From assembly GCF_000380125.1 (NCBI RefSeq), contig NZ_KB904580.1:149137-213136 (forward strand): DNA of 64,000 nt, read 5' to 3'. The stretch comes from Streptococcus ovis DSM 16829 (GTDB taxonomy: Bacteria > Bacillota > Bacilli > Lactobacillales > Streptococcaceae). The notes below the pieces were generated by a model. The model did not search any database. It was not told where the DNA came from and saw only the letters and a list, made by a program, of their open reading frames with translations. Within the stretch, counting starts at the first letter, position 1, and each line of letters begins with the position of its first letter. Positions 1,123 through 43,034 of the stretch are shown here, one piece after another. The position numbers and the translations under genes were made by a program.

Positions 1123-1306
1123 CAGCTACTCCTTGATATTTATTTTAGTAACATTTTATCACACTGCGCAAACGTTTTCAATAAGTAATTGTTTTCGAAC
1201 TCTTTCAGAAATATTTTAGCTCATTTCCATATTTTTTATTTCAATATTCTCAATTATATCTTTATCTGAAAATATTACAAACGTATTACAAATGTTACGT
1301 TTTGTC

Positions 1307-1335: not shown

Positions 1336-1365
1336 ATAAGTGAATTGAAGAAAGGAAGTATCAAC

Positions 1366-2007
1366 ATGCATCTTATGTCAAAAAAACTCTCTACTGTCAT
1401 CTGTCTAATGGCTTCCGTAACGCTACTTGCTGCCTGTGGTCCCAAGCAGGGTAAGCAGGGTAAGGCCAAAGATTCATCTCCTGCCACGGCAACAACTGTC
1501 GCAAAAACAACGCAACAAACTAGCCAAGATACCCCTTCAACAACCGTAAGTACAAACCAAACACCTACTTCTCCTACTCAAGCAGTACCAGTGACCGTCG
1601 AACCTGTAACGACATCTGGTACATTTCCTCCAGAAGTCCTTGGTACATTTTCAGGAAACAGTTTGCAAGCAAAAGATGTTTCCATCACCTTTGCGTCAGA
1701 CGGTACCGTCACAACAACCGCAAACTTCGCTTGGGACGGTGTAGATAATATCCAAAATAGTCAAGCTACGATTAGTTCTGTGACCCTTGTTGCTCCAAAT
1801 ACCTATCGCATTGACCACTTCGATGGAGATATCGAAGCCATCCTTCCAGGAATTACAGGACTTGGAGGAGTATACAACGGCATTATTCAACAGGGCTTCA
1901 AAATCGAAAACGGCACCTTTACCCCTGTTCATTTCATGGCCCCAACACAGGAGGAAATGGATTACAACCGTGCACAAGACTTTGGAGTCACCCTTAACCG
2001 ACAATAA
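1366..2007 (+). CDS. Secreted lipoprotein of unknown function
   Basis: The protein has a short basic N-terminus, a hydrophobic run and a lipobox LLAAC-G, so it should be lipidated and surface-anchored. A low-complexity Thr/Ser/Gln linker (about residues 25-75) follows, then a globular domain of about 135 residues without recognised motifs. The open frame extends upstream to a TTG at 1345, but that codon sits next to the ribosome-binding site AAAGGAAG; the ATG at 1366 has correct spacing and is preferred. It has its own promoter and terminator, so it is monocistronic. The linker-plus-globular design resembles small streptococcal lipoproteins with an extracellular binding domain, but I do not recognise a family. 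Confidence 0.75.
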   Translation: MHLMSKKLSTVICLMASVTLLAACGPKQGKQGKAKDSSPATATTVAKTTQQTSQDTPSTTVSTNQTPTSPTQAVPVTVEPVTTSGTFPPEVLGTFSGNSLQAKDVSITFASDGTVTTTANFAWDGVDNIQNSQATISSVTLVAPNTYRIDHFDGDIEAILPGITGLGGVYNGIIQQGFKIENGTFTPVHFMAPTQEEMDYNRAQDFGVTLNRQ

Positions 2008-5082: not shown

Positions 5083-6594
5083 CTACTCTTCTAGGGCTTC
5101 ATTGCTTCTTTGATAAAGCTTCGTCATCTTCCGTAGAAAGTCCTTTTTGTCCTGAGTCAACTCTTCTGTTCGCATCCGCCATTCCCAGTTACCACCAATG
5201 GTAGATGGTCTGTTCATACGGCTTTCCTTCCCTAAATTCAGTATGTCTTGCATGCTGGCAATTACGGTATTGCTCACAGTAGCAAATAAGATCCGGAGCA
5301 TGGCTTGATTCACAAGCTCATGTGGGTTGCGATGGCTATAGTCATCAACATATGCTTGTTGCTCTGTTGTCAATTGATCATACCATTCATTGACCACTTC
5401 ATTATCGTGTGTACCAAGATAGGCAATCGAATGCGCAATACATCTGTGAGGGGCATCGATGCTCTTACCAGTGATATCACTCAGACCAAACTCTAAAATT
5501 TTCATCCCAGGATAGCCACAATCATTTAGCAATTGACGAGCTTTGTCATCTATATTACCCAAATCTTCTGCAATAATTGGCAAGTCCCCCAAGCTCTCCT
5601 TAACCGTTTTAAACAGCTTATATCCTGGACCTGGTTGCCATGTTCCAATGCGAGCAACTGCGGCATTCCCATCTACTTGCCAATAATCTGAGAATCCTTT
5701 AAAGTGATCAATTCGTAAAACATCATATAACTTCAAACTCTCACGAATGCGATAAATCCATCAACTAAATCCTGTTTTTTCATGCTGGTTCCAATCATAA
5801 AGGGGATTCCCCCATAATTGGCCATCTGCACTAAAATTATCAGCCGGTACTCCCGCTACATAGAGTGGTTTCCTCTGCTCATCCAACTGAAATAATTGAG
5901 GCTGAGTCCATACTTCTACACTATCAGCTGATACATAGATGGGCATATCCCCTATAATCTTAATGTGGCGGTCATTTGCATATTGTTTTAATGCCTTCCA
6001 TTGACTGAAAAAGAAATACTGACAGGCTTTGAAATAGTCAATTTGCTCTGCCAAATCTTGTCGGTAACGAGCAAGTGCTACTTCGTCTCGAGAAATGACG
6101 GCTTGGTCAGGCCAATCCTGTAATGCCTTGTTGCCAAAATATTCCTTTATCGCCATAAACTCAGCATAAGCATCTAGCCAAGAGGAATTCGCCGTTTTAA
6201 AGGCTGAAAAAATGGACTGTGCAGTTGTATCCTTCAAAAAATTTTGAACTGCTAATTCTAAAATAGGTCTACGAGCCTGAAACAACAACGCATAATCTAC
6301 TTTCTCAGGATTTGTTCCAAAATCAACACGCTCATAATCACTTTTATCTAACCAGCCCTCCCTAGCCAATAAATCAAAATCAATCAAATGCGTATTTCCA
6401 GCAATAGCAGAAAAAGATTGATAGGGAGAATCCCCATAACTTGTGGTTGTTAACGGAAGAATCTGCCAATAACTTTGTTTTGTTTCTACTAAGAAATCCA
6501 CGAAATCATAGGCAGATTGTCCAAAGGTCCCAATCCCAAATTTCCCTGCTAAAGAAGTAATGTGCATCAATACACCACTTGTTCTTTTGAACAT
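5083..6594 (-). pseudogene. malQ: 4-alpha-glucanotransferase (amylomaltase) with an in-frame TGA
   Basis: The two open segments (6594-5761 and 5736-5083) lie in the same frame and together make a normal-length MalQ of about 503 residues. They are separated by a TGA at 5763-5761, codon 278, directly before a TGG, in the context EKTGFS-stop-WIYRIRESLK. The family has two adjacent tryptophans there, so this is a single G-to-A change of TGG. The upstream half has the MalQ lead motifs (SLAGKFGIGTFG, YGDSPYQSFS, IIGDMPIYV). The downstream half carries RIDHFKG with the catalytic Asp region, IIAEDLG and YLGTHDNE. The product would normally disproportionate maltodextrins. As read, only an inactive 277-residue fragment is made. 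A base-call error is the alternative. Confidence 0.88.
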
Positions 6595-23872: not shown

Positions 23873-24571
23873 TCAATGATTTTTCATAATCTCATTCATA
23901 TAACCAGCTGTAATAATACCAGCAGGTAAAGCAACAATGGCAATTCCTAGTACGGACGAGACCATTGTAATTAATTTTCCCAATGTTGATACAGCAAAGA
24001 TATCCCCATAGCCAACTGTAGTAAGAGAAATTGTTGCCCAATATAATGCATCAAAAAAAGTATCAAATGTTGTCGGTTCAACAGTAAACATTAACAAGGC
24101 CGTGAAAAGAATGTAGCCCGTTGCTAGCACTATGACTAATAACAGAGCCTCTCTCTGTTTCTTCATCACATTGGTCAAAATCGCAATATTTTTTGAATAG
24201 CGAACAATCTTAAATAGTCGCAACAAGCGCCCCATTCTAACTACTTTTAATAACTTTAAACTATTACTCAGTACAAAGAATGTTGGTAAAATACACAGTA
24301 AGTCCACTATTGCCATAATAGTCAATGGATAGAAGAAAAACGACGCTTTTCCCCTCCCTAACTTGAGATCAGATGTTATCCATCGTAAGATGTAATCCAT
24401 ACAAAACAGAGCTGTTGTAACATATTCAAACACTGTAAACACTAATAAGTGTTCTTTAAACATCAACGGCACAATACTAAGAAATATCGTTACCAACATC
24501 AAAAGATTGTAAGATTTCGAAATCAGACTATCCGATTTATTTTCTAAAATGCTAAATACATTTTCTCTCAT
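23873..24571 (-). CDS. Voltage-gated-like potassium channel (6TM)
   Basis: This 232-residue ion channel subunit has five to six membrane segments, an arginine-rich S4-like helix ([15 protein letters not shown]) and the potassium selectivity filter TTVGYGD before the last helix. No C-terminal RCK domain is present. It should form a tetrameric membrane channel. Its ATG lies within the stop of the upstream gene (four-base overlap with tmcAL), so it is translationally coupled to it, though no functional link is evident. Confidence 0.85.
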
Positions 24572-25659
24572 TCAATCCCCCTCATCGGCACCCGCCCCCA
24601 GGTCTGCTCTGCAATTCTCATGTCTCCCAGCTGGTAGATGGCATCTGCTTGCTGCGTGAGTGCATCCCATGGTTCTGCGCCGATTCGAGCGACGATTTCC
24701 ACAGACTTTTTCACCGTTTTGAGGTGTTCGCGTCCTTTGTTGGTAAATCCGAGGACATGGACGGCTTCTGGCAGCGGTTTTTCCACAGCATTGACCAAGA
24801 TATAAGTCAATAATCGTCGCACGCGCGCCTTGGTATAGCGTTTGGTCGCAACAGCGTCCACAAGGTCTTCTACCGTCGCTACGCTCCGAATAGAGAAGCG
24901 GATACGATTAGCTAGTTCTTCATTGACTTGGAAAATCTGTGTTAAATCTGGATTTGTTAAAATTTGGTATTTCAACAATTGAAAATAATCCTCCCAAGAT
25001 ACCTGTGGAGAATTGAGGATCAAGTCACTACTTGGTACTGACTTTTCCACAAAAGCTTGGTCAGAAAGATGCTTACGGATGGCAGTTGCCGAGGCAATCT
25101 CTATTTTTTCTTCCGAGTGAAAGCCTGCTCCGATACGCTGAATGGGCTGTAATCGAATATTCTTTCCAGCGCAGGCTTTTGCGTAAGCTAAACCAAGAAT
25201 GTGATTGGGGGTATCTCCTGAAAAGTCAATCCCTGCAAAGGTTTCCCACATCTTTTGCGTTTTTTGCGGGTAGGACAAGTCATCTGGGAGCGTTTGGATA
25301 AAAGCCTCCATCTGCTCTGCCATTTCCTCATAAACACCTGAAAAACGCTGATAATCAAGAACTTCCTCCGTGCCAAATGCCAGTGTGTCGATGCCAAGAC
25401 GATGCAAAATGTCAACTGCGCCCTGGGCGAAATGGTCGGCGGACTGGACGGAGACGAGGAAGGGGAGCTCCACCACGAGGTCAGCCCCATGCGCCAGCGC
25501 CATCTGCGCCCGCGTCCACTTGTCAATGAGGGCAGGCTCCCCCCGCTGCATGAAATTCCCACTCATGGCAACAATCTTCACCCCTTCTGCCTGCGCCAAA
25601 AGGTGCTTGTGTCCATTGTGGAAAGGGTTAAATTCGGCAATGATGCCTGTTGTGGTCAT
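24568..25659 (-). CDS. tmcAL: tRNA(Met) cytidine acetate ligase TmcAL (YlbM family)
   Basis: This 363-residue nucleotidyltransferase-fold enzyme has the family start [18 protein letters not shown] (HxGH-type ATP site), [23 protein letters not shown] and [11 protein letters not shown]. TmcAL activates acetate with ATP and acetylates C34 of elongator tRNA(Met). AAAGGAA precedes the ATG at 25659. It is transcribed together with the K+ channel gene. Length is normal. Confidence 0.88.
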
Positions 25660-26800: not shown

Positions 26801-28012
26801 CTATCTTCTTCCAAATCCACCTCCTTGGCCTGGCCCTGTTGCAACAATTTCACTTTGCTCCTCACCATTCACTATGATCGTACCTCCAGTATATGAAACC
26901 TGGCCATCAAAATCAAAAGCAGACTGTGCTGTAATATCTAATGTACCTCCCGTTACTGTAAGGTCCCCATTTGAATCAATCGCATCAGTGTCTCCCTGAC
27001 CAACTTCTACCTTAATATCTCCTCCGTTTATGATAATGAAAATTTCACTAGCGGATGCTGAAGCATTGGCCGCATTGATACCATCATCTGTTGCATAAAC
27101 ATCAATTGTTCCGTCATTAATGGTAATAGATTTTCCTCCAATAGCTTCTGTTGATTGGGATACAGTGTAATTTCCGCTATCAATCACAAGATTTCCAGAA
27201 GCATGAATCGCATCATCTCCAGCAGAGATGGTCATCGTGTTATTAGCAAGATACATATTACCAACGCTAAGATCCTCATCATTGTCTACTTTCACAGCAT
27301 CCTCAGTTGCCGTAATCGTCATCGTTGTATCTTTAATATTAAGTTCATCATTTACATTAAAGGCATCGCCAGCAGCTGTGATGTCAAATGTTCCTCCTGT
27401 AATGTGCAGGGTATCATTTGCCTTGATGCCATTATTACGCTTTCCTTCGACAGTCAATCGGCCACTGCCATTAATGGTTAAATCAACTTTTGAAAACAAG
27501 GCCGCATCCGCATCTTCATCATTATTTGAGGTTGAATCTGCCAACTGATTCTGACTACCTTCTGCTAAAGTAACCGTAACATGTTTGGCAGATGTTACTG
27601 AAATAGGAGCTCCACTAGCAGACATGGTCGCATTATCTAGGACCAGTTGCACATTGTCACTATCACCTGCCGTAACAACAACTTGGACACCTTCTGATTC
27701 TCCAGAAATGACATAAGTCCCTGCTTTTGAAATGGTGACAGTTGACCCCGCTACATCGACTCCCTCACCTGATACTGTAGCTGTTGCATTAGCCAATTGG
27801 ATCTTTGTAGCACTTGCTTCATCATAAGTTGCTACTTGATCTTGTTCTGTAAAATAAGAAGAATTTTCTGAGGTTAATTTATTTTGAGTTGGGCTACTTG
27901 TCGTTGTTGAGGTTTTCTCTGAATTTTGTGCAGATGCCGATGAACAACCAGCTAATAAGGCTAGGGTTGTTAGGCTGGTAAATACTAATTTGTGTGATTT
28001 TTTGAATAACAT
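26801..28012 (-). CDS. Carbohydrate-binding-type (DUF4353, Cthe_2159-like) surface lipoprotein
   Basis: This 403-residue lipoprotein has a lipobox LLAGC-S and a Ser/Thr-rich linker. A long right-handed beta-helix built of short repeats such as GTFDITAAGDAFNVNDEL and NTMTISAGDDAIHASGNLVI follows, with many DDAI/EDAV/DDGI turns that look like calcium sites. The end is Gly-rich (GPGQGGGFGRR). Cthe_2159-like proteins bind polysaccharide. It is divergent from the VTC-domain gene, and its promoter carries the same 11-bp-period repeats as the other two promoters of this locus, so it should act with them at the cell surface (inference). Confidence 0.82.
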   Translation of the reverse strand: MLFKKSHKLVFTSLTTLALLAGCSSASAQNSEKTSTTTSSPTQNKLTSENSSYFTEQDQVATYDEASATKIQLANATATVSGEGVDVAGSTVTISKAGTYVISGESEGVQVVVTAGDSDNVQLVLDNATMSASGAPISVTSAKHVTVTLAEGSQNQLADSTSNNDEDADAALFSKVDLTINGSGRLTVEGKRNNGIKANDTLHITGGTFDITAAGDAFNVNDELNIKDTTMTITATEDAVKVDNDEDLSVGNMYLANNTMTISAGDDAIHASGNLVIDSGNYTVSQSTEAIGGKSITINDGTIDVYATDDGINAANASASASEIFIIINGGDIKVEVGQGDTDAIDSNGDLTVTGGTLDITAQSAFDFDGQVSYTGGTIIVNGEEQSEIVATGPGQGGGFGRR

Positions 28013-28042
28013 ACTATTTCCTCGTGTTCATTTGATGCCTCT

Positions 28043-28097
28043 ACTATAACGGAGTAGTCTAAAACCATTCTGAAAATTTTCCTAAAGAATCCTTAAA
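28043..28097 (-). promoter_or_regulatory. Lipoprotein promoter with four 11-bp-spaced TTTNAG repeats
   Basis: On the minus strand TTTAAG, TTTAGG, TTTCAG and TTTTAG end at 28092, 28081, 28070 and 28059, exactly 11 bp apart. The -10 TATAGT (28048-28043) begins 10 bp after the last. No -35 hexamer is needed, as in response-regulator-activated promoters. Confidence 0.65.
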
Positions 28098-28107
28098 GCA
28101 ATTTGAG

Positions 28108-28151
28108 ACCTAGCTGATTTTTAAAAATCTTTTAGTTTTCTCCTTTAAAAT
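28108..28151 (+). promoter_or_regulatory. VTC-DUF4956 promoter with 11-bp-spaced repeats
   Basis: ACCTAG (28108), TTTTAA (28119) and TTTTAG (28130) are 11 bp apart. TAAAAT (28146-28151) starts 10 bp after the last repeat. The layout is the same as at 28043-28097 and 32201-32254. Confidence 0.6.
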
Positions 28152-28188
28152 ACCCTTCATATCTTATTTTAAAAGGAGAATTAAGTTT

Positions 28189-28956
28189 ATGTCACAGACC
28201 CTTCAAACAACATTCAAGCGCATTGAGACCAAATATATCATTGAAAAAGAGAACCTAGCTACTTTAATGGCGGATTTAAAACACTATCTCACAGAAGATG
28301 ATCATCCAACCTCTACCATCACAAATATCTACTTTGATACAGAAAACTTTGATGTCATTAAGGACGCCTTGGCTGGCAGAAATCTACGTGAAAAAATTCG
28401 GATGCGCAGCTATCTCTCTCATCCAACCTCTGATAGTCAAGCCTTTTTAGAAGTCAAACAAAAGGATGCTCAAGGAGTTGGTCATAAATTTCGCATTATT
28501 TCTACACCTGCAGCCATCACAAATTTATTGACAACTGGCACAATCTGCTCGAATCTGAAAAATAGCGACTATGTAAATGACATCTTAACCCTTAGAAAAC
28601 GCTATGACGAGCTGATTCCACGTATCTTTATTTCTTATGACCGTTTCTCACTTAAACAGAAAAAAGATATCGAAGACAAGGTTCGTATCACATTTGACCA
28701 AAACCTTTGCTATCGTGACTACCAAGTTACCAATTACCAAAGCAAAGAATCAGAACCACTAATGCCTGATAATCAACTGATTATGGAGATTAAAGCTGCT
28801 GAAGACAAGCCAGCTTGGTTACAGGAAATCTTGGACAAACATAAGCTGACCCAGATTAAATTTTCCAAATATACTGCTGCTTACCATAAATCTCAAAACA
28901 TTCCTTACTCTCCACGACCTGCCTTGGTTAAAGAAAGGGGGTTGGCGCATGCCTAA
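28189..28956 (+). CDS. VTC-domain protein (polyphosphate-polymerase-like)
   Basis: This 255-residue protein matches the VTC/CYTH-like tunnel fold: RIETKYII at the start, IYFDTEN, KIRMRSY, FLEVKQK, VRITFDQN, LIMEIK and the late KFSKYTAAY. These supply the basic and acidic residues that line the tunnel in yeast Vtc4, which makes polyphosphate from ATP. AAAAGGAG precedes the ATG. The stop overlaps the start of the DUF4956 membrane protein by eight bases. VTC-DUF4956 pairs recur in bacteria near surface-protein genes; their product is not established. Polyphosphate or another anionic polymer made at the membrane is plausible. Confidence 0.82.
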   Translation: MSQTLQTTFKRIETKYIIEKENLATLMADLKHYLTEDDHPTSTITNIYFDTENFDVIKDALAGRNLREKIRMRSYLSHPTSDSQAFLEVKQKDAQGVGHKFRIISTPAAITNLLTTGTICSNLKNSDYVNDILTLRKRYDELIPRIFISYDRFSLKQKKDIEDKVRITFDQNLCYRDYQVTNYQSKESEPLMPDNQLIMEIKAAEDKPAWLQEILDKHKLTQIKFSKYTAAYHKSQNIPYSPRPALVKERGLAHA

Positions 28957-29632
28957 TATTTTTGACAGTGTCTTTCAAACAACAACGACATCCGTAAATC
29001 CCTTGCTTCTTTTACTAGCCTTGGTGATTAGCCTTGTCCTTGGACTAGCTTTATCGTGGGTTTATCGCTACCGAACACTTTATACCAAAGAATTTGCTAC
29101 GACACTCACGTTACTACCAAGTTTAATCGCTTTTATGATTTTTCTTGTCAATGGAAGTCTCGGTACAGGTATTGCAGTAGCAGGAGTATTCTCACTCATT
29201 CGCTTTCGTTCCGCTACCAGTGGTTCAAGAGAACTGCTTGCTATCTTTATGGCAATGATAATTGGGCTTTCCGTTGGTTCAGGTTTTCTTCTCCTTGCTC
29301 TTTTAATCACTATCTTTCTACTCACTATTTGGTTTTTTCTTGATAGAAGACTAGCTAGACATACCTTACCTTCAAGTCGTTATTTACGTATGACTTATCA
29401 CTACTACACAGATACTCAGGAGATAATCAATCATATTTTTCAAGATTTTTGTCACCATTACCAGTTAGTCAGCCTAAAGAGCAATCAAGAACAACATGCT
29501 TTGACAGTGGATTATGAAATTCATCTCAACAGCCCTGTTGATGATTTTGAATTAATTCAAAGCCTTAAAACAAAACTCCATGTTTCTGATATCAGCTTAT
29601 CTACAAAAGCTAAAAAGAAAAAGAATCTTTAA
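28949..29632 (+). CDS. DUF4956 domain-containing membrane protein
   Basis: This 227-residue protein has four membrane helices in the first 130 residues. The DUF4956 signature GVFSLIRFRSATSGSREL follows the second or third helix, and a soluble about 85-residue tail ends in a Lys-rich stretch. It is translated in overlap with the VTC-domain protein and is likely its membrane partner or channel. The function is not known. Confidence 0.82.
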   Translation: MPNIFDSVFQTTTTSVNPLLLLLALVISLVLGLALSWVYRYRTLYTKEFATTLTLLPSLIAFMIFLVNGSLGTGIAVAGVFSLIRFRSATSGSRELLAIFMAMIIGLSVGSGFLLLALLITIFLLTIWFFLDRRLARHTLPSSRYLRMTYHYYTDTQEIINHIFQDFCHHYQLVSLKSNQEQHALTVDYEIHLNSPVDDFELIQSLKTKLHVSDISLSTKAKKKKNL

Positions 29633-29639
29633 AACGTCC

Positions 29640-29661
29640 CCTTCAATTTATCGGAGGGGTT
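29640..29661 (+). terminator. Terminator after the DUF4956 gene
   Basis: CCCCTTC/GGAGGGG-type hairpin followed by TTTTAT, eight bases after the stop. Between 29662 and 29780 I see nothing further. Confidence 0.55.
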
Positions 29662-29779
29662 TTATCTTGCCTTGACCGTCGTCCGAAATGATTGACAGTG
29701 ATAATTCTGAGAGACAGGTTATAGAGGTGTTTAATCGCTAAACCAGTCTGCCCTAGCTATCATGTCATATCACAGACAA

Positions 29780-29812
29780 AAAGCTTGCGATAGTCATATA
29801 TCACAAGCTTTC
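29780..29812 (-). terminator. Terminator of the GT2-GtrA operon
   Basis: AAAGCTTG pairs with CAAGCTTT, with additional GAT/ATC pairs inside, just downstream of the glycosyltransferase stop. Confidence 0.65.
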
Positions 29813-29823
29813 TATACTATTTC

Positions 29824-30834
29824 TCAAACGAACACTAAGGTGTGCTGCATGCGGTAACTGAGAATAAATAAAATGACTTCTGTAACGATTTTAGCAATGA
29901 CTAATCCTATCCCTACACTAATAAGACTTTGGATCAAAACATAATTACAAGCCAGCAAAAATAAGGCTAATAATCCATATCTCGCTAATCGTCTAAAAGA
30001 GTTACTTGTTCGATGAAATACATGATTGGCATTCAAATAAAACTGAGTTAGAGCACTTAAAATCCTCGCAACAATGATGGAAAGTAGCAGATTTTTCGTC
30101 CATAACATCATGATGAGGAGTAAAACCATATCAACAACAGCAGCCGTCAGTGCAATTCCTGAAAATTTAAGGAAAGGTGTATAAATTCTAATAGAATCCA
30201 CAATTGGACGAAAATGTGAACGACTATTTTCTTCAATGTACACTGTCTCAATAGGTACTTCTATTAGTTCCACATTGCCTCCCTTGGCTTCTAGTAACAT
30301 CTTAAATTCATACTCAAAACGATCTCCTTCTAACTGCAACAACCAAGGTAGTAGCTGACTCGGAAATGCCCTCAGACCAGTTTGAGTATCCGTGATAGCC
30401 TGACCTGTTACTAGACGAAATAAACCTGCTGTCACTGTATTTCCAAACCGGCTTCTAAAAGGTACTTGACCCACAAAAGCCCTAGCACCTAGAATAATAA
30501 CTCTTTCTTCCACATTGACCGCATTAGCTACCTTCACCATATCAGATACAAGATGTTGACCATCACTATCAATTGTCACAATCATATCATCTGCTCTGCC
30601 ATGTTCTACAAGATACGAAAAGGCTGTCTTAAGTGCGGCGCCCTTTCCCTTGTTATGTGAATGACTTAGTACGATAGCACCGAGGTCTGAAACTTGGTCA
30701 AAATAATCATCATATTCGACAGAAGAGCCATCGTTAATAACCAGTATTTCACCTTGTGGCAACTGCTCTCTTACTTCTTTGACAACCTTGACCAACCTGT
30801 CATCTGGTTCATAACTTGGAATAATGACTTTCAT
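29824..30834 (-). CDS. Family 2 glycosyltransferase fused to a GtrA-like membrane domain
   Basis: The first about 225 residues are a dolichyl-phosphate-mannose-synthase-like GT-A domain (IPSYEPDDRL, VINDGSS, NKGKGAALKTAF, TIDSDGQH, ITDTQTGLRAF). The last about 110 residues are a GtrA/DPMS-type membrane domain with four helices. Such proteins load a sugar onto a polyprenyl phosphate and help flip it. It ends the operon NAGPA-like, small membrane protein, GT2-GtrA, so it may supply the sugar that the neighbouring surface system uses or edits (inference). The start at 30834 is 40 bases after the preceding gene. Confidence 0.85.
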   Translation of the reverse strand: MKVIIPSYEPDDRLVKVVKEVREQLPQGEILVINDGSSVEYDDYFDQVSDLGAIVLSHSHNKGKGAALKTAFSYLVEHGRADDMIVTIDSDGQHLVSDMVKVANAVNVEERVIILGARAFVGQVPFRSRFGNTVTAGLFRLVTGQAITDTQTGLRAFPSQLLPWLLQLEGDRFEYEFKMLLEAKGGNVELIEVPIETVYIEENSRSHFRPIVDSIRIYTPFLKFSGIALTAAVVDMVLLLIMMLWTKNLLLSIIVARILSALTQFYLNANHVFHRTSNSFRRLARYGLLALFLLACNYVLIQSLISVGIGLVIAKIVTEVILFILSYRMQHTLVFV

Positions 30835-30873
30835 AACTACCTTCTTTCTATTTGTGATAACTGACGATTTAGA

Positions 30874-31266
30874 CTATTTGGGGGACTTGCCCATCCATCC
30901 ACTAAGGAAACTTGCCCCCAGGAACAATGCTCCAACAATCCAGTAAGGTTGCTCCAAACTAGTACTTCGACCCGAAATTTCAATAATACCCTTTATAAGA
31001 CAACCACTGACCAATATCGCGATAGCTGAATTAAAAAGTACATAGGACAAACGATAACGTAACCAAGTTTCTTGGAGCACTGCTAAAAGAAAAACAAGTG
31101 CTCCGACCAGAGGGATGAGAAACATCCCCCGCATATACCATGAGCTTTCTCCATAGCTAAATTGTTCATAAACATATGTGAACAAGATAAGGAAAAGAGA
31201 TAATCCCAAGTAACTGAAAGTCCCTTTTTTTAATGTTTTTTTAGTAACCGATGTAAACAATATCAC
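30874..31266 (-). CDS. Small four-helix membrane protein
   Basis: This 130-residue protein has four predicted membrane helices (YLGLSLFLILFTYVY, GMFLIPLVGALVFLLAVL, YVLFNSAIAILVSGCLI, WIVGALFLGASFLSGW) and short polar ends. The start overlaps the 3' end of the NAGPA-like gene by 26 bases, so translation is coupled. No family is recognised. It may anchor or scaffold the glycosyltransferase encoded next. Confidence 0.6.
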   Translation of the reverse strand: MILFTSVTKKTLKKGTFSYLGLSLFLILFTYVYEQFSYGESSWYMRGMFLIPLVGALVFLLAVLQETWLRYRLSYVLFNSAIAILVSGCLIKGIIEISGRSTSLEQPYWIVGALFLGASFLSGWMGKSPK

Positions 31267-32167
31267 TCACCGCCCTTTCTTTGATTGTATTCCCATTCGT
31301 TGTTGGGTTATTGACAACCTGACCATTAAAGTACATCGTTGAAGAACCACCGCCATCCAGATTATAAGCTGTTGTCACACCATAAGACTGCATCACCTCT
31401 GCCAACTCGTTAAGAGTTAGCCCTGAAGACTCACTTGTTCGACCATCTGATACGACGACAATATAGTGGAGACTGCCGTCACTTTCTTCAACGATACCAA
31501 TTGCTGTTCGCGGATTATCAGACATAGCCCGTCCTACCTCATCAGTCGTTGAAACGGCTATCTCACCATCTGAAACCAAAGTTGGTCCAAATGCAAAGGT
31601 CTGAACTACACCAGCCTCTACTAATTCCTGAGCACTCGTATCACTTTCGGAAATCGTACCAAAATGACCATCTTCATAAACAACCAAATCCTCATCATCT
31701 GAACTACGCTGTGAATCGCGGTATAAAGTTCCATTTTTTATCACATATCCAGTACTATTTGCTCCATAATAATCTCCATTGATAGCAAATATGGCTCCAA
31801 CTCCTTCTGCTTGTGACGACGTTGTCTCAGTAACATTGGTCCCATAGGTATTTTGAGCCAGTGCCGTTTTTAGGTACGAAGCATCACTCAATCGAATATC
31901 TGCCACATAAACTGTTGTCTCATTGACACGTTTCGTCTCAATTTCTACAGATATATGATCATCTGAATAACTTGTTTCAGTTTGAGTTACTTGACCAGTG
32001 GAATTCGATTGTGTAGCAATTGTATTTGTTATCTTAGACTGAGAGGAAACCTCAACGGAAGACATCGCTTCAGGAATCACAAATGTCTTAGCCAGTACAT
32101 AAGTATTTGCACCTAGTAAAACTGTTGTAAATAAAATAGTATAAGCATGTTTTTTTAGTATTTTCAT
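31241..32167 (-). CDS. Secreted phosphodiester glycosidase (NAGPA-like domain)
   Basis: This 308-residue protein has an N-terminal membrane/signal segment (HAYTILFTTVLLGANTYVLA), a Ser/Thr-rich stalk, and a NAGPA/DUF2233 domain recognised by INGDYYG, NPRTAIGI, VVVSDGRTSESSGLTL and YNLDGGGSSTMYF. NAGPA domains cleave GlcNAc-1-phosphodiesters in lysosomal and some bacterial systems. The ATG at 32167 is preferred to a TTG at 32185, although AGGTGG is only three bases upstream. It is first in the operon with a membrane protein and GT2-GtrA. It may trim phosphodiester-linked sugars from a surface polymer (inference). Confidence 0.82.
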   Translation of the reverse strand: MKILKKHAYTILFTTVLLGANTYVLAKTFVIPEAMSSVEVSSQSKITNTIATQSNSTGQVTQTETSYSDDHISVEIETKRVNETTVYVADIRLSDASYLKTALAQNTYGTNVTETTSSQAEGVGAIFAINGDYYGANSTGYVIKNGTLYRDSQRSSDDEDLVVYEDGHFGTISESDTSAQELVEAGVVQTFAFGPTLVSDGEIAVSTTDEVGRAMSDNPRTAIGIVEESDGSLHYIVVVSDGRTSESSGLTLNELAEVMQSYGVTTAYNLDGGGSSTMYFNGQVVNNPTTNGNTIKERAVSDIVYIGY

Positions 32168-32200
32168 ATGCCACCTGCTTTCCAATATGCTAGTAGAGGT

Positions 32201-32254
32201 ATTCTACCTTCTAAATCTAAAGTAATTCTAAAAATTTCTGAACCTTTTCTTAAA
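32201..32254 (-). promoter_or_regulatory. NAGPA operon promoter with 11-bp-period repeats
   Basis: Minus-strand TTTAAG (32254-32249), GTTCAG (32243-32238), TTTTAG (32233-32228) and CTTTAG (32222-32217) are spaced 11, 10 and 11 bp. TAGAAT (32206-32201) begins 10 bp after the last. Confidence 0.58.
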
Positions 32255-41158: not shown

Positions 41159-41854
41159 TTATTTTTTAGGATCAATATTCTTAAATTCTAGATCGTCCAC
41201 ACTAATTTGGACATCCAATTCCTGTTCAGAATTCAAATTTAATAGATTTTCCAAGGCTACCTCTGAGAATTTTGCCACTTTCTTCTGACGCTCTTTGTCG
41301 TTCATGACTTCATTACTTGTAGCATGAATAGCATCTTGACTTTTTTCTTCCAAAAACTCCATAGCTTTTTGACTTCCGGTCACAAGGTCTACTCCCTTAT
41401 CAAGTATTCCACTTGACGATTTTTTGACCTTTGACTCTCCGACCTTTTGTGAATCAACATATACCAATAGTGGTTTGTTAAAGGTCAATACATTATTTTT
41501 AATAGAAATATCTTCCTTTCCCAAATCTTCCAACTCTAGTTTAAATTCTGTTTTAACTGGCATTGTTACTTCAACTTTACGGCTGACAATTAAATCTGCT
41601 ATAAAGTCTGCCCATTCTGGCCAATCTTTCGTCATATCTGAATTAAATTCTTTATTAGCCTTTGTTGCAACATCTGCATCCGCCACTACTAATTGGCTCT
41701 TCTTAGGAAATCGCTTGATAACAAACTGATATTCTGCTGAAGTCGTTCCACCAAATAACTGTGATTTCCCCCAAACTCCAATACCAACTACAATTAAAAC
41801 AACTACAATGACTGCTGCTATTTTATTAGCCAATGCTTTACCTAATGTTTTCAT
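41159..41854 (-). CDS. DUF4230-like membrane-anchored protein
   Basis: This 231-residue protein has one N-terminal helix (IAAVIVVVLIVVGIGVWG) and a beta-rich extracytoplasmic region, EYQFVIKRF to DIQISVDDLEF. The pattern resembles DUF4230 proteins of unknown function. The frame opens at 41920, but the ATG at 41854 follows GGAGG with good spacing. It has its own transcript and lies just downstream of the candidate small RNA and its terminator. Confidence 0.7.
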   Translation of the reverse strand: MKTLGKALANKIAAVIVVVLIVVGIGVWGKSQLFGGTTSAEYQFVIKRFPKKSQLVVADADVATKANKEFNSDMTKDWPEWADFIADLIVSRKVEVTMPVKTEFKLELEDLGKEDISIKNNVLTFNKPLLVYVDSQKVGESKVKKSSSGILDKGVDLVTGSQKAMEFLEEKSQDAIHATSNEVMNDKERQKKVAKFSEVALENLLNLNSEQELDVQISVDDLEFKNIDPKK

Positions 41855-41960
41855 ATATACCTCCAAAATCTCTACAAATATTATATATATTGTCAACCCT
41901 ATTTGACAATAAACTTCCAAATGTACCTCCTTCTATCCTAGGAGTTGTAAATTTTGCGGA

Positions 41961-42022
41961 AAAAAGAAAACACCGCCCTCAGTCATGAGAACAGTGTTTT
42001 CAGGAGATATATGAAAAAGAAT
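41961..42022 (-). ncRNA. Candidate Cia-dependent small RNA (csRNA-like)
   Basis: From the -10 at 42034-42029 an RNA should start near 42022 and run about 62 nt. It has an unpaired 5' part with CATATATCTCCT, the complement of a Shine-Dalgarno plus start codon. It ends at the stem GAAAACAC/GTGTTTTC (41966-42001, with inner CTCA/TGAG) followed by TTTTTT. No open frame is present. Pneumococcal csRNAs have the same size, anti-SD run and terminator and are activated by CiaR. Confidence 0.7.
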
Positions 42023-42028
42023 AAATCT

Positions 42029-42061
42029 ATTGTAACGAGCCTTCCTTAAAGAAACCTTAAA
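42029..42061 (-). promoter_or_regulatory. CiaR-type box and -10 of the small RNA
   Basis: Minus-strand TTTAAG-N5-TTTAAG (42061-42045) fits the CiaR consensus NTTAAG-N5-WTTAAG exactly. TACAAT (42034-42029) begins 10 bp after it, the spacing known for CiaR-activated promoters. Confidence 0.75.
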
Positions 42062-42076
42062 ATTTTTTAAAAATTT

Positions 42077-42994
42077 TTATTTTTTCCATTGCCTCTTCTG
42101 GCTGGCTACCAAATCGCGGATAGAAATGAGAAGAACTGCTGCAATAATCAAGACCATGCCCAAAAAGTCACTAACTGAAAAAGAAGTCCCCATCAGCACA
42201 ACCGTCAACAACACACTGGCCACAGGCTCAACACTTGCCAATAAGCTCCCTTTGACTGCTCCAATCATACTAACTCCGTGCAAAAAAATGGTATAGGCAA
42301 AGACCGTCCCAATTCCCACAATTCCAAATAAGGCCAGTAGGTTCATCCCCGTCACTTCAAAAGAATATTGCCATGACTGGGTGATGACAGGAAAGAGAAA
42401 CCCACCAAATAACATACTAAGACTAATCACATGCAGACTACCATATTCCTTGATTTGTTTAACTGGAATTAACAGATAGGCTGAATAAGTAAAGGCAGAC
42501 AAAATTCCCCAAAATAAACCCAAGGGTGTAATCGCTAGCTCGCTTAGATTTCCATGAGTAGCCATGACAAAGGTGCCCCCTATGGCTAATACAATCGCTA
42601 CAACTTCCGTCCAAGAAGGAAAGATACGATCTCGCAAACAAGTGTAGAGGAGTACCAAAATAGGGGTGACATATTGTAAAACCGTTGCTGTGCCAGCATT
42701 GGTATACTGAATGGCACTGAGGTAGGCGTATTGATTGAGGAGAAGCCCAAAAAGAGCAAATAACATCAATCTGCCCACTTCTTGTTTTGAACGTAACATA
42801 CGAACCAATTTCTCTTTATCATTAACATAAGCAAGTCCTGTCAAAAAAAGACCCGCTATCAATAAGCGTAGACTTGTCAGGAGATTAACATGTAGACCAT
42901 GGCTCAGCAAATACTGACCAGACACCCCTGAAATCCCCCATGAAAGTCCCGCAATCAAGGTCAACCATGTCCCTTTTGTTGTTTTTTGCATCAT
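42077..42994 (-). CDS. EamA/DMT-family transporter
   Basis: This protein of about 305 residues has ten membrane helices in two EamA repeats (GLSWGISGVSGQYLL; GTATVLQYVTPILVLLY; GIVGIGTVFAYTIFLHG; ASVEPVASVLLTVVLMG). It is a drug/metabolite exporter of unknown substrate. Two consecutive ATGs (42994 and 42991) have only a weak GAAGTGAGA site, so the exact start is uncertain. It is preceded by the galT terminator. Confidence 0.82.
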   Translation of the reverse strand: MMQKTTKGTWLTLIAGLSWGISGVSGQYLLSHGLHVNLLTSLRLLIAGLFLTGLAYVNDKEKLVRMLRSKQEVGRLMLFALFGLLLNQYAYLSAIQYTNAGTATVLQYVTPILVLLYTCLRDRIFPSWTEVVAIVLAIGGTFVMATHGNLSELAITPLGLFWGILSAFTYSAYLLIPVKQIKEYGSLHVISLSMLFGGFLFPVITQSWQYSFEVTGMNLLALFGIVGIGTVFAYTIFLHGVSMIGAVKGSLLASVEPVASVLLTVVLMGTSFSVSDFLGMVLIIAAVLLISIRDLVASQKRQWKK

Positions 42995-43034
42995 TCTCAC
43001 TTCTATTTTTAGAATAGTACCCTATCAGTATACC

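What the first reader, a model, noticed from the sequence alone, without database searches (positions are those of the whole stretch)
26801..32254. Envelope locus of VTC, DUF4956, DUF4353, NAGPA-like and GT2-GtrA genes under one shared promoter design
Three transcription units lie together: a DUF4353 lipoprotein; VTC plus DUF4956; and a NAGPA-like protein, small membrane protein and GT2-GtrA. Each promoter has TTTNAG-like hexamers at about 11-bp period. These are at 28059/70/81/92 on the minus strand, 28108/19/30 on the plus strand, and 32217/28/38/49 on the minus strand. In each case the last repeat ends exactly 10 bp before a -10 (TATAGT, TAAAAT, TAGAAT) and no -35 is present. An OmpR-type response regulator could therefore switch all of them together. 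The enzymes suggest a membrane system that makes an anionic polymer (VTC), exports or anchors it (DUF4956), edits phosphodiester-linked sugars (NAGPA), and displays a calcium- or glycan-binding lipoprotein. The function as a set is inference and, to my knowledge, not described.
Basis: partly seen in the sequence, partly recalled or inferred. Interest (0 to 1): 0.72.

Follow-up and report, generated by a model that had tools for sequence, protein, structure and literature searches.

The report
CiaR-switched cell-envelope gene set
Genes for an unstudied cell-surface system in streptococci carry the switch of a well-known stress sensor, CiaRH, and in many distant Gram-positive bacteria a CiaRH-like sensor sits beside these genes, which suggests that running them was its original job.

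Summary
TTTNAG hexamers at 11-bp period end 10 bp before a -10, with no -35, at all three units. This is the architecture published for CiaR-activated promoters, here extended to as many as four hexamers. It is conserved before DUF4353, VTC and NAGPA genes of streptococci. A profile trained only on those arrays also finds csRNA-like genes (the hallmark CiaR targets) and, in 8 of 16 relatives, the ciaR operon. CiaR is present in 28 of 28 VTC genomes tested; three accessory regulators are absent from most. Beyond Streptococcus, 12 of 20 VTC neighbourhoods of the same phylum encode a CiaR-clade regulator and kinase nearby. In 10 of those 12, CiaR-type sites lie before both the regulator gene and VTC. 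One genome (L341) holds all six window proteins in one collinear cluster with that two-component system. I conclude that the locus is a dispersed, CiaR-controlled version of an old envelope system. The regulatory link is strong but computational: no binding or expression was tested. The chemistry (a phosphate-rich polymer plus glycan editing) is inferred.

The parts
28043..28097 (-). P1: four-hexamer CiaR-type array (TTTAAG, TTTAGG, TTTCAG, TTTTAG at 11-bp steps), N10, -10 TATAGT; promoter of the DUF4353 lipoprotein
   Evidence: rank 2 of 127,936 positions with the csRNA-promoter matrix; 14 of 17 to the published consensus
26801..28012 (-). DUF4353/Cthe_2159 carbohydrate-binding-domain lipoprotein
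   Evidence: Pfam PF14262 E 4e-67; PDB 4peu E 7.6e-24
28119..28151 (+). P2: two hexamers (TTTTAA, TTTTAG), N10, -10 TAAAAT; promoter of VTC-DUF4956; only two good hexamers, the distal one without its G
   Evidence: rank 3; 13 of 17, tied with chance positions; conserved position in relatives
28189..28956 (+). VTC-domain protein (triphosphate-tunnel fold, putative polyphosphate polymerase)
   Evidence: Pfam PF09359 E 1e-44; Vtc4 in PDB E 4.5e-5; basic columns invariant
28949..29632 (+). DUF4956 membrane protein, overlaps the VTC stop codon
   Evidence: Pfam PF16316 E 2.5e-14; found near VTC in 78 of 80 loci
32201..32254 (-). P3: four hexamers (steps 11, 10, 11), N10, -10 TAGAAT; promoter of NAGPA-membrane protein-GT2/GtrA
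   Evidence: rank 4; 13 of 17, tied with chance positions; matrix sites before NAGPA in 5 of 5 related loci; array-profile hits before unlinked NAGPA genes L262 and L272, whose proximal hexamers are degenerate
31241..32185 (-). NAGPA-domain protein (phosphodiester glycosidase family), N-terminal membrane anchor by eye; ATG at 32167
   Evidence: Pfam PF09992 E 6e-39; NAGPA structures in PDB
30874..31266 (-). 130-aa membrane protein without a Pfam family, overlaps NAGPA; a similar gene follows NAGPA in L228 and L341
29824..30834 (-). GT2 glycosyltransferase fused to GtrA membrane domain
   Evidence: Pfam PF00535, PF04138
1203..1235 (+).
   Evidence: exact pattern match; rank 5; 13 of 17, tied with chance positions
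1345..2007 (+). lipoprotein of unknown family behind P4
42029..42061 (-). promoter of a predicted csRNA: TTTAAG-N5-TTTAAG-N10-TACAAT
   Evidence: rank 1; 16 of 17
41958..42022 (-). predicted csRNA (CTTTTTCATATATCTCC motif, strong terminator hairpin); ends approximate
   Evidence: fold -22.1 kcal/mol; below Rfam's csRNA1 cut-off

Best explanation
The three units (plus probably a fourth at 1203) belong to the CiaR regulon. Phosphorylated CiaR binds the tandem hexamers in place of a -35 and recruits RNA polymerase to the -10, as at published CiaR-activated promoters; extra hexamers probably load a second dimer. The genes behind them are a dispersed form of an old envelope system that in other lineages of the phylum still sits beside its own CiaRH-type two-component system. 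Under envelope stress sensed by CiaH the cell would switch on the following. VTC-DUF4956: a cytosolic phosphate-polymer synthase with a membrane partner that takes the product across. GT2-GtrA: makes and flips a lipid-linked sugar. NAGPA and the small membrane protein: cut or transfer phosphodiester-linked sugars outside. DUF4353: a surface lipoprotein that binds the polyanionic glycan. Shown here: sequence families, promoter architecture, its conservation, and gene-regulator linkage. Inferred: CiaR binding, direction of control, all chemistry.
For: (1) A 30-array profile containing no csRNA or ciaR promoter has, outside its own gene families, csRNA-like genes and htrA among its best own-genome matches and csRNA-like genes and ciaR operons among those of 16 relatives: of 70 held hits 17 are csRNA-like and 6 ciaX-like; in 8 of 16 relatives a listed hit lies within 770 bp upstream of ciaR on its strand. 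Two hits reach Rfam's csRNA cut-off, and one of them (L253) itself has TTTTAG as proximal hexamer. (2) A matrix from 20 csRNA-like promoters ranks P1, P2, P3 and 1203 second to fifth of 127,936 window positions, scores 22.2-13.5, next 4.3; random windows give 0.05 positions above 13. Within 260 bp upstream in 80 loci it scores above 9 for 63 of 80 VTC, 59 of 66 DUF4353, 5 of 5 NAGPA and 0 of 78 DUF4956. (3) The published consensus alone, no learned weights: 13 or more of 17 matches before 61 of 64 DUF4353, 65 of 79 VTC, 5 of 5 NAGPA, 0 of 77 DUF4956. (4) CiaR in 28 of 28 VTC genomes; RR095 in 12 of 42, RR097 in 4 of 28, RR094 in 2 of 28 at 80% identity and 4 more at 41-44%. (5) In 12 of 20 non-streptococcal VTC neighbourhoods a regulator closest to CiaR plus a kinase lies within 3 kb of VTC; the 12 form a clade with CiaR, 95/90, apart from nine other regulators. 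By the matrix, a site before the regulator gene is among the four best of its locus in 10 of 12, and before VTC in 12 of 12; L354 has 17 and 16 of 17 consensus matches. (6) L341 carries all six window proteins collinear beside that system.
Against: No binding, expression or mutant data. Proximal hexamers at DUF4353 promoters are mostly TTTCAG or TTTTAG, not the TTTAAG that dominates csRNA promoters (position 4 is A in 18 of 20). P2's distal hexamer lacks the final G called extremely important (PMC3091779, passages read). By consensus alone P2, P3 and 1203 do not exceed chance inside the window, and by the matrix P3 (14.4) and 1203 (13.5) lie under the 99th percentile (16.2) of random-window maxima. 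The own genome's ciaR promoter, which has GTTTAG-N5-ATTAAG-N10-TATACT, is not among the 16 own-genome profile hits. 17 of the 20 csRNA-like promoters were found through the array profile and 3 by a TTTNAG pattern, so the matrix is not fully independent; the csRNA labels rest on a sequence motif (2 of 15 submitted pass Rfam). 17 of 80 VTC genes miss a matrix site or could not be scored, among them L162-L168 (S. suis, S. minor, an uncultured Streptococcus). Two of the twelve VTC sites outside Streptococcus score below zero (L340, L344). The tree lacks the other regulators of those genomes and has long branches. VicR, PnpR, RitR, BceR, RR093 and RR100 were not tested for absence. A supplementary list of predicted CiaR sites in S. 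sanguinis could not be read.
Confidence: 0.8

Rival explanations
1. Another OmpR-type regulator with a related site (for example a BfrA- or SaeR-like one) owns the arrays, and CiaR only resembles it.
For: Position 4 of the proximal hexamers differs from classic CiaR sites. From memory, a published BfrA motif resembles P3 and 1203; the paper is not held and a term search found nothing.
Against: In the 16 genomes whose arrays were found by the profile, RR095 (SaeR-like) is present in 2, RR097 in 1, RR094 at 80% identity in 2. csRNA-like and ciaR promoters share the arrays, including TTTCAG and TTTTAG hexamers. CiaR-clade regulators sit near VTC in 12 of 20 other neighbourhoods.
Confidence: 0.1
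2. The hexamers are chance AT-rich promoter texture with no shared regulator.
For: Within the window, P2, P3 and 1203 reach only 13 of 17 by consensus, as random sequence often does; a loose genome pattern shows no excess.
Against: Strict period 11 with gap 10 conserved over many species while internal-gene controls show none; sites persist when genes are rearranged.
Confidence: 0.03
3. CiaR control is right, but the system serves an exopolysaccharide or wall glycopolymer, and VTC-DUF4956 makes no free polyphosphate (for instance it phosphorylates a glycan or carrier, as an accessory like the CotH-VTC-DUF4956 set beside pel genes).
For: VTC (poly-phosphate polymerase), DUF4956, CotH and DUF4832 are described as accessory genes of streptococcal and clostridial pel clusters (PMC7112168, passages read). 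Here the partners are glycan-protein families.
Against: Residues forming the Vtc4 phosphate tunnel (roles recalled) fall in invariant columns, so polyphosphate synthesis is possible. No pel or CotH family came up for the nine ORFs scanned between 23873 and 33067 (ORF 24568-25659 not scanned).
Confidence: 0.45

Closest known systems
CiaR-activated promoters of Streptococcus (TTTAAG-N5-TTTAAG, N10, -10; PMC3091779, PMC8186281, PMC8317062, passages read)
   Same: Hexamer period, 10-bp gap to the -10, no -35; third T, fifth A and final G kept in most hexamers; csRNA-like genes and ciaR operons of relatives share the array
   Different: Three to four tandem hexamers in many promoters, and T or C at position 4 near the -10; the target genes are not named in the passages read
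Accessory set CotH-polyphosphate polymerase (VTC)-DUF4956-DUF4832 beside gram-positive pel clusters (PMC7112168, passages read)
   Same: VTC-type polymerase with DUF4956 in streptococci and clostridia
   Different: Here DUF4353, NAGPA and GT2-GtrA are the partners and a CiaRH-type system the likely regulator; no pel or CotH family among the nine ORFs scanned around the locus
Yeast VTC complex (Vtc4, PDB 3g3q)
   Same: VTC domain with conserved basic residues; the membrane partner of the yeast complex is recalled
   Different: Separate membrane protein of another family (DUF4956); no SPX domain in this 255-aa protein; activity untested
PDB 4peu (listed there as an uncharacterized protein, recalled as Cthe_2159)
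   Same: Sequence relative of the DUF4353 lipoprotein, 88 bits over 216 residues
   Different: Here a streptococcal lipoprotein; ligand untested

Membership tests
CiaR-activated promoter | two hexamers NTTAAG/TTTAAG in direct repeat with N5; third T, fifth A, final G kept | tested here: inconclusive
   P1, P3 and 1203 keep T3, A5, G6 in both proximal hexamers but not A4; P2's distal hexamer lacks G
CiaR-activated promoter | 10 bp between the proximal hexamer and the -10, no -35 | tested here: met
CiaR-activated promoter | CiaR encoded in the genome | tested here: met
   L099 in G000 has the published CiaR recognition helix; CiaR in 28 of 28 VTC relatives
CiaR-activated promoter | CiaR binding and CiaR-dependent transcription | not testable with these tools
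   needs protein and RNA experiments
CiaRH-type two-component system (VTC-adjacent, outside Streptococcus) | regulator groups with CiaR rather than with other OmpR regulators | tested here: met
   12 of 13 adjacent regulators in one clade with CiaR, 95/90; L355 falls near VicR. Compared only with the regulators of G000; long branches present
CiaRH-type two-component system (VTC-adjacent, outside Streptococcus) | CiaR recognition helix | tested here: inconclusive
   7-10 of 13 residues identical in the 12; other G000 regulators 3-7
VTC polyphosphate polymerase | VTC domain with conserved basic tunnel residues and glutamate | tested here: met
   residue roles recalled
VTC polyphosphate polymerase | polymerises phosphate from ATP | not testable with these tools
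   no assay
NAGPA phosphodiester glycosidase | NAGPA domain over its full profile | tested here: met
   profile 2-168 of 169; PDB relatives
pel accessory set | CotH and pel genes contiguous | tested here: not met
   no such family among the nine ORFs scanned between 23873 and 33067; 24568-25659 not scanned

The most novel reading that the evidence does not exclude
CiaRH began as the dedicated, self-regulating two-component system of a VTC-DUF4956-DUF4353 (with NAGPA, small membrane protein and GT2-GtrA) envelope system in the ancestor of Bacillota or an early lineage of it. Streptococci dispersed the cluster and widened the regulon to csRNAs, htrA and others, so the unknown CiaH signal is the state of that envelope polymer or of the glycan it decorates.
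Probability: 0.5. Interest if true: 0.8.

Novelty: new variant of a known kind. Interest (0 to 1): 0.68.

Why it matters
CiaRH is tied to beta-lactam resistance, competence, biofilm and virulence in streptococci (PMC8186281, passages read). If its oldest partners are these genes, there is a concrete place to look for what CiaH senses and why it matters to the envelope. It also gives an unstudied, widely conserved gene set (VTC, DUF4956, DUF4353, NAGPA, GT2-GtrA) a likely regulator, conditions in which to assay it, and a whole-cluster version in one genome (L341).

Tried and rejected
Rejected: (a) chance texture, by period and gap controls and internal-gene controls. (b) Accessory regulators RR094, RR095, RR097 as sole owner, because most VTC genomes lack them. 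(c) AGCTCTGCTATTTT, found before VTC in three relatives, as a co-regulatory site: it is a dispersed element, 26 copies with up to 1 mismatch in G000 against 1 in the control. (d) A regulator beside VTC in the first four non-streptococcal loci, L178-L181: none seen by eye; found only in the wider sample. (e) Loose pattern counts in the own genome: no excess at 2 mismatches. (f) The count of 57 DUF4956 is too low because overlapping hits were dropped; searches give 76 and 78.

Led nowhere: looking for a paper with a VTC, DUF4956 or NAGPA target of a streptococcal two-component system (searches, of which I saw the listed rows only; passages in 8, 26, 28, 29, 32, 33, 41, 54, 63, 64, 71, 83, 84). 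The statement that the link is not in print rests on these alone; the supplement of PMC5719415 could not be read.
Full report
What is there. The arrays are as described, with corrections: P2 has two good hexamers, not three; P3 has steps of 11, 10 and 11. The proximal hexamer ends 10 bp before TATAGT, TAAAAT and TAGAAT, and no good -35 is present.

How far the window itself goes. Alone, it is suggestive only. Against the published CiaR consensus, P1 scores 14 of 17 (random windows: 0.46 positions at 14 or more); P2, P3 and a fourth site at 1203 score 13, as do five other positions (10 at 13 or more in the window, 4.5 in random windows). A loose pattern shows no genome-wide excess.

Conservation. 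In 80 loci from named genomes (76 Streptococcus) DUF4956 is found in 78, DUF4353 in 66, NAGPA and GT2-GtrA in 5 each. In dereplicated upstream regions, 15 of 17 DUF4353, 4 of 5 NAGPA and 20 of 43 VTC carry the three-hexamer array with N10 and a -10; shuffled sequence gives 0.025-0.05, and the internal gene DUF4956 0 of 27. Period 11 with gap 10 is the clear peak for the three genes. Genes move and arrays follow: in S. henryi (L105) NAGPA, DUF4353 and GT2-GtrA lie together opposite VTC; in L121 GT2-GtrA itself faces VTC behind an array (though its matrix score, 8.3, is under the cut-off); in S. plurextorum and S. porci a NAGPA gene on another contig still has an array-profile hit (L262, L272), with a degenerate proximal hexamer.

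Which regulator. The own genome encodes ten OmpR-type regulators. A sequence profile of 30 arrays (none a csRNA or ciaR promoter) was run on the own genome and 16 relatives that have VTC. In the own genome it returns, besides P1-P3, three csRNA-like genes, htrA and others, but not the ciaR promoter, although this has a CiaR-type site. In the relatives it returns csRNA-like genes and ciaR operons. Of 70 hits that I held, 16 are DUF4353, 9 VTC, 3 NAGPA, 17 csRNA-like, 6 ciaX-like, 2 an ABC permease and 17 unassigned by the script (two of these, L220 and L256, look like DUF4353 and csRNA by position and by eye); the tool listed further, mostly weaker, hits that I did not fetch. In 8 of 16 relatives a listed hit lies within 770 bp upstream of ciaR on its strand (searches compared). 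The csRNA label rests on a sequence motif; 2 of 15 submitted reach Rfam's csRNA1 cut-off. Some csRNA-like promoters carry the same TTTCAG or TTTTAG hexamers, and some four-hexamer arrays (L224, L235, L253). CiaR is present once in each of 28 tested VTC genomes; RR095 in 12 of 42 (one only in part), RR097 in 4 of 28, RR094 in 2 of 28 at 80% identity and 4 more at 41-44%. Six other regulators of the own genome were not tested this way.

Reverse test. A matrix from 20 csRNA-like promoters puts the window's csRNA first, then P1, P2, P3 and 1203, then a gap; 300 random windows gave 15 positions above 13 in all, with a 99th percentile of maxima of 16.2, so P1 and P2 stand alone and P3 and 1203 only as part of the group. 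In the 80 loci, 149 of 2.43 million positions exceed 9: 69 before VTC, 59 before DUF4353, 5 before NAGPA, 16 elsewhere (one of the 16, in L105, is the DUF4353 promoter by eye). Per gene: 63 of 80 VTC, 59 of 66 DUF4353, 5 of 5 NAGPA, 0 of 5 GT2-GtrA, 0 of 78 DUF4956; genes that could not be scored count as misses. This matrix is not fully independent, since 17 of its 20 promoters were found by the array profile and 3 by a TTTNAG pattern. So the published consensus was used with no learned weight: 13 or more of 17 before 61 of 64 DUF4353, 65 of 79 VTC, 5 of 5 NAGPA, 0 of 77 DUF4956.

Beyond Streptococcus. In the four non-streptococcal loci (L178-L181) the best matrix site of the locus is directly before VTC (scores 11.6-18.4, next 1.8 or less). 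A VTC profile hit 56 of 398 genomes drawn from the phylum (unnamed; I take the phylum to be Bacillota). In 28 further non-streptococcal loci the best upstream site ranks first or second of about 7,300 positions in 20, three of these with a score below zero, and exceeds 9 in 11. Of these 28, 19 were enlarged, and one more VTC locus of G628 was added (9 were not enlarged). In these 20, a regulator closest to CiaR among the ten (38-43% identity) and a kinase lie within 3 kb of VTC in 12. The 12 regulators and CiaR form one clade (95/90), apart from the nine others; a thirteenth neighbour, L355, falls near VicR; the tree holds no other regulators of those genomes and has long branches. By the matrix, a site before the regulator gene is among the four best of its locus in 10 of 12 and before VTC in 12 of 12, two of the latter (L340, L344) with scores below zero; by the bare consensus L354 has 17 of 17 before the regulator and 16 of 17 before VTC. 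L341 holds, in one collinear row, GT2-GtrA, NAGPA, the small membrane protein, VTC, DUF4956 and DUF4353, with the two-component system divergent, and sites before the regulator (20.1), VTC (15.8) and the GT2 operon (7.3): the window's set, whole.

Mechanism. CiaR-activated promoters are published as TTTAAG-N5-TTTAAG, ten bases, -10 (PMC3091779, passages). By analogy, phosphorylated CiaR on the hexamers replaces the -35; further hexamers would load a second dimer. Activation, not repression, is inferred from the spacing. The protein side is inference from families: VTC (basic tunnel columns invariant; roles recalled) with DUF4956 makes a phosphate polymer or phosphorylates a carrier and moves it; GT2-GtrA supplies a lipid-linked sugar; NAGPA edits phosphodiester-linked sugars; DUF4353 binds the glycan. 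I put the regulatory part at about 0.8 and free polyphosphate at about one half. VTC-DUF4956 with CotH beside pel genes (PMC7112168, passages) shows that the pair can serve other polymers.

Novelty. The listed rows of searches show no paper linking CiaR to VTC, DUF4956 or DUF4353. The term VTC is absent from the main texts of PMC8317062, PMC5719415, PMC9241815, PMC11502775 and PMC11034029. The library is partial, and the supplementary list of predicted CiaR sites in S. sanguinis (PMC5719415) was not readable.

Noticed in passing
window 41958-42061 (-): Predicted csRNA with a near-perfect CiaR promoter, between the ORFs at 41159-41920 and 42077-43000.
   Followed up: partly
window 1203-1235 (+): CiaR-type site before an unknown lipoprotein (1345-2007); a second -10-like stretch lies nearer the gene.
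   Followed up: partly
L240 (G132), L242 (G169), L243 (G209), L251 (G038): A small Q/N/G-rich membrane protein lies between a full array and ciaR, in the place of ciaX of S. mutans; similar genes in L249 and L259 lie away from ciaR but also have arrays.
   Followed up: partly
L237, L244, L254, L255, L263: Very short ORFs (about 23 residues, IKVNYQK or ISVNYPK near the start) directly behind CiaR-type arrays.
   Followed up: no
L233 (S. henryi) and L246 (G235): Array before an ABC-permease-like gene (70% identical in the two).
   Followed up: no
G000 genome-wide; L103, L105, L106 before VTC: AGCTCTGCTATTTT is a dispersed element: 10 exact copies in G000, 26 with up to 1 mismatch, control 1.
   Followed up: no
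G000, listing: A repeated 33-mer TTTCAGGCTGATTTTATTTGGAAAGTATAGTTT (several near-identical copies) fits the loose pattern with one mismatch.
   Followed up: no
L312, L313, L314, L317, L341: VTC promoters with TTTCAGNCTAATTTCAG preceded by an inverted copy; in L341 this holds even where the upstream gene is codirectional.
   Followed up: no
window 5083-6594 (-): Two adjacent ORFs (5083-5736 and 5761-6594) look like the halves of one 4-alpha-glucanotransferase (by eye).
   Followed up: no
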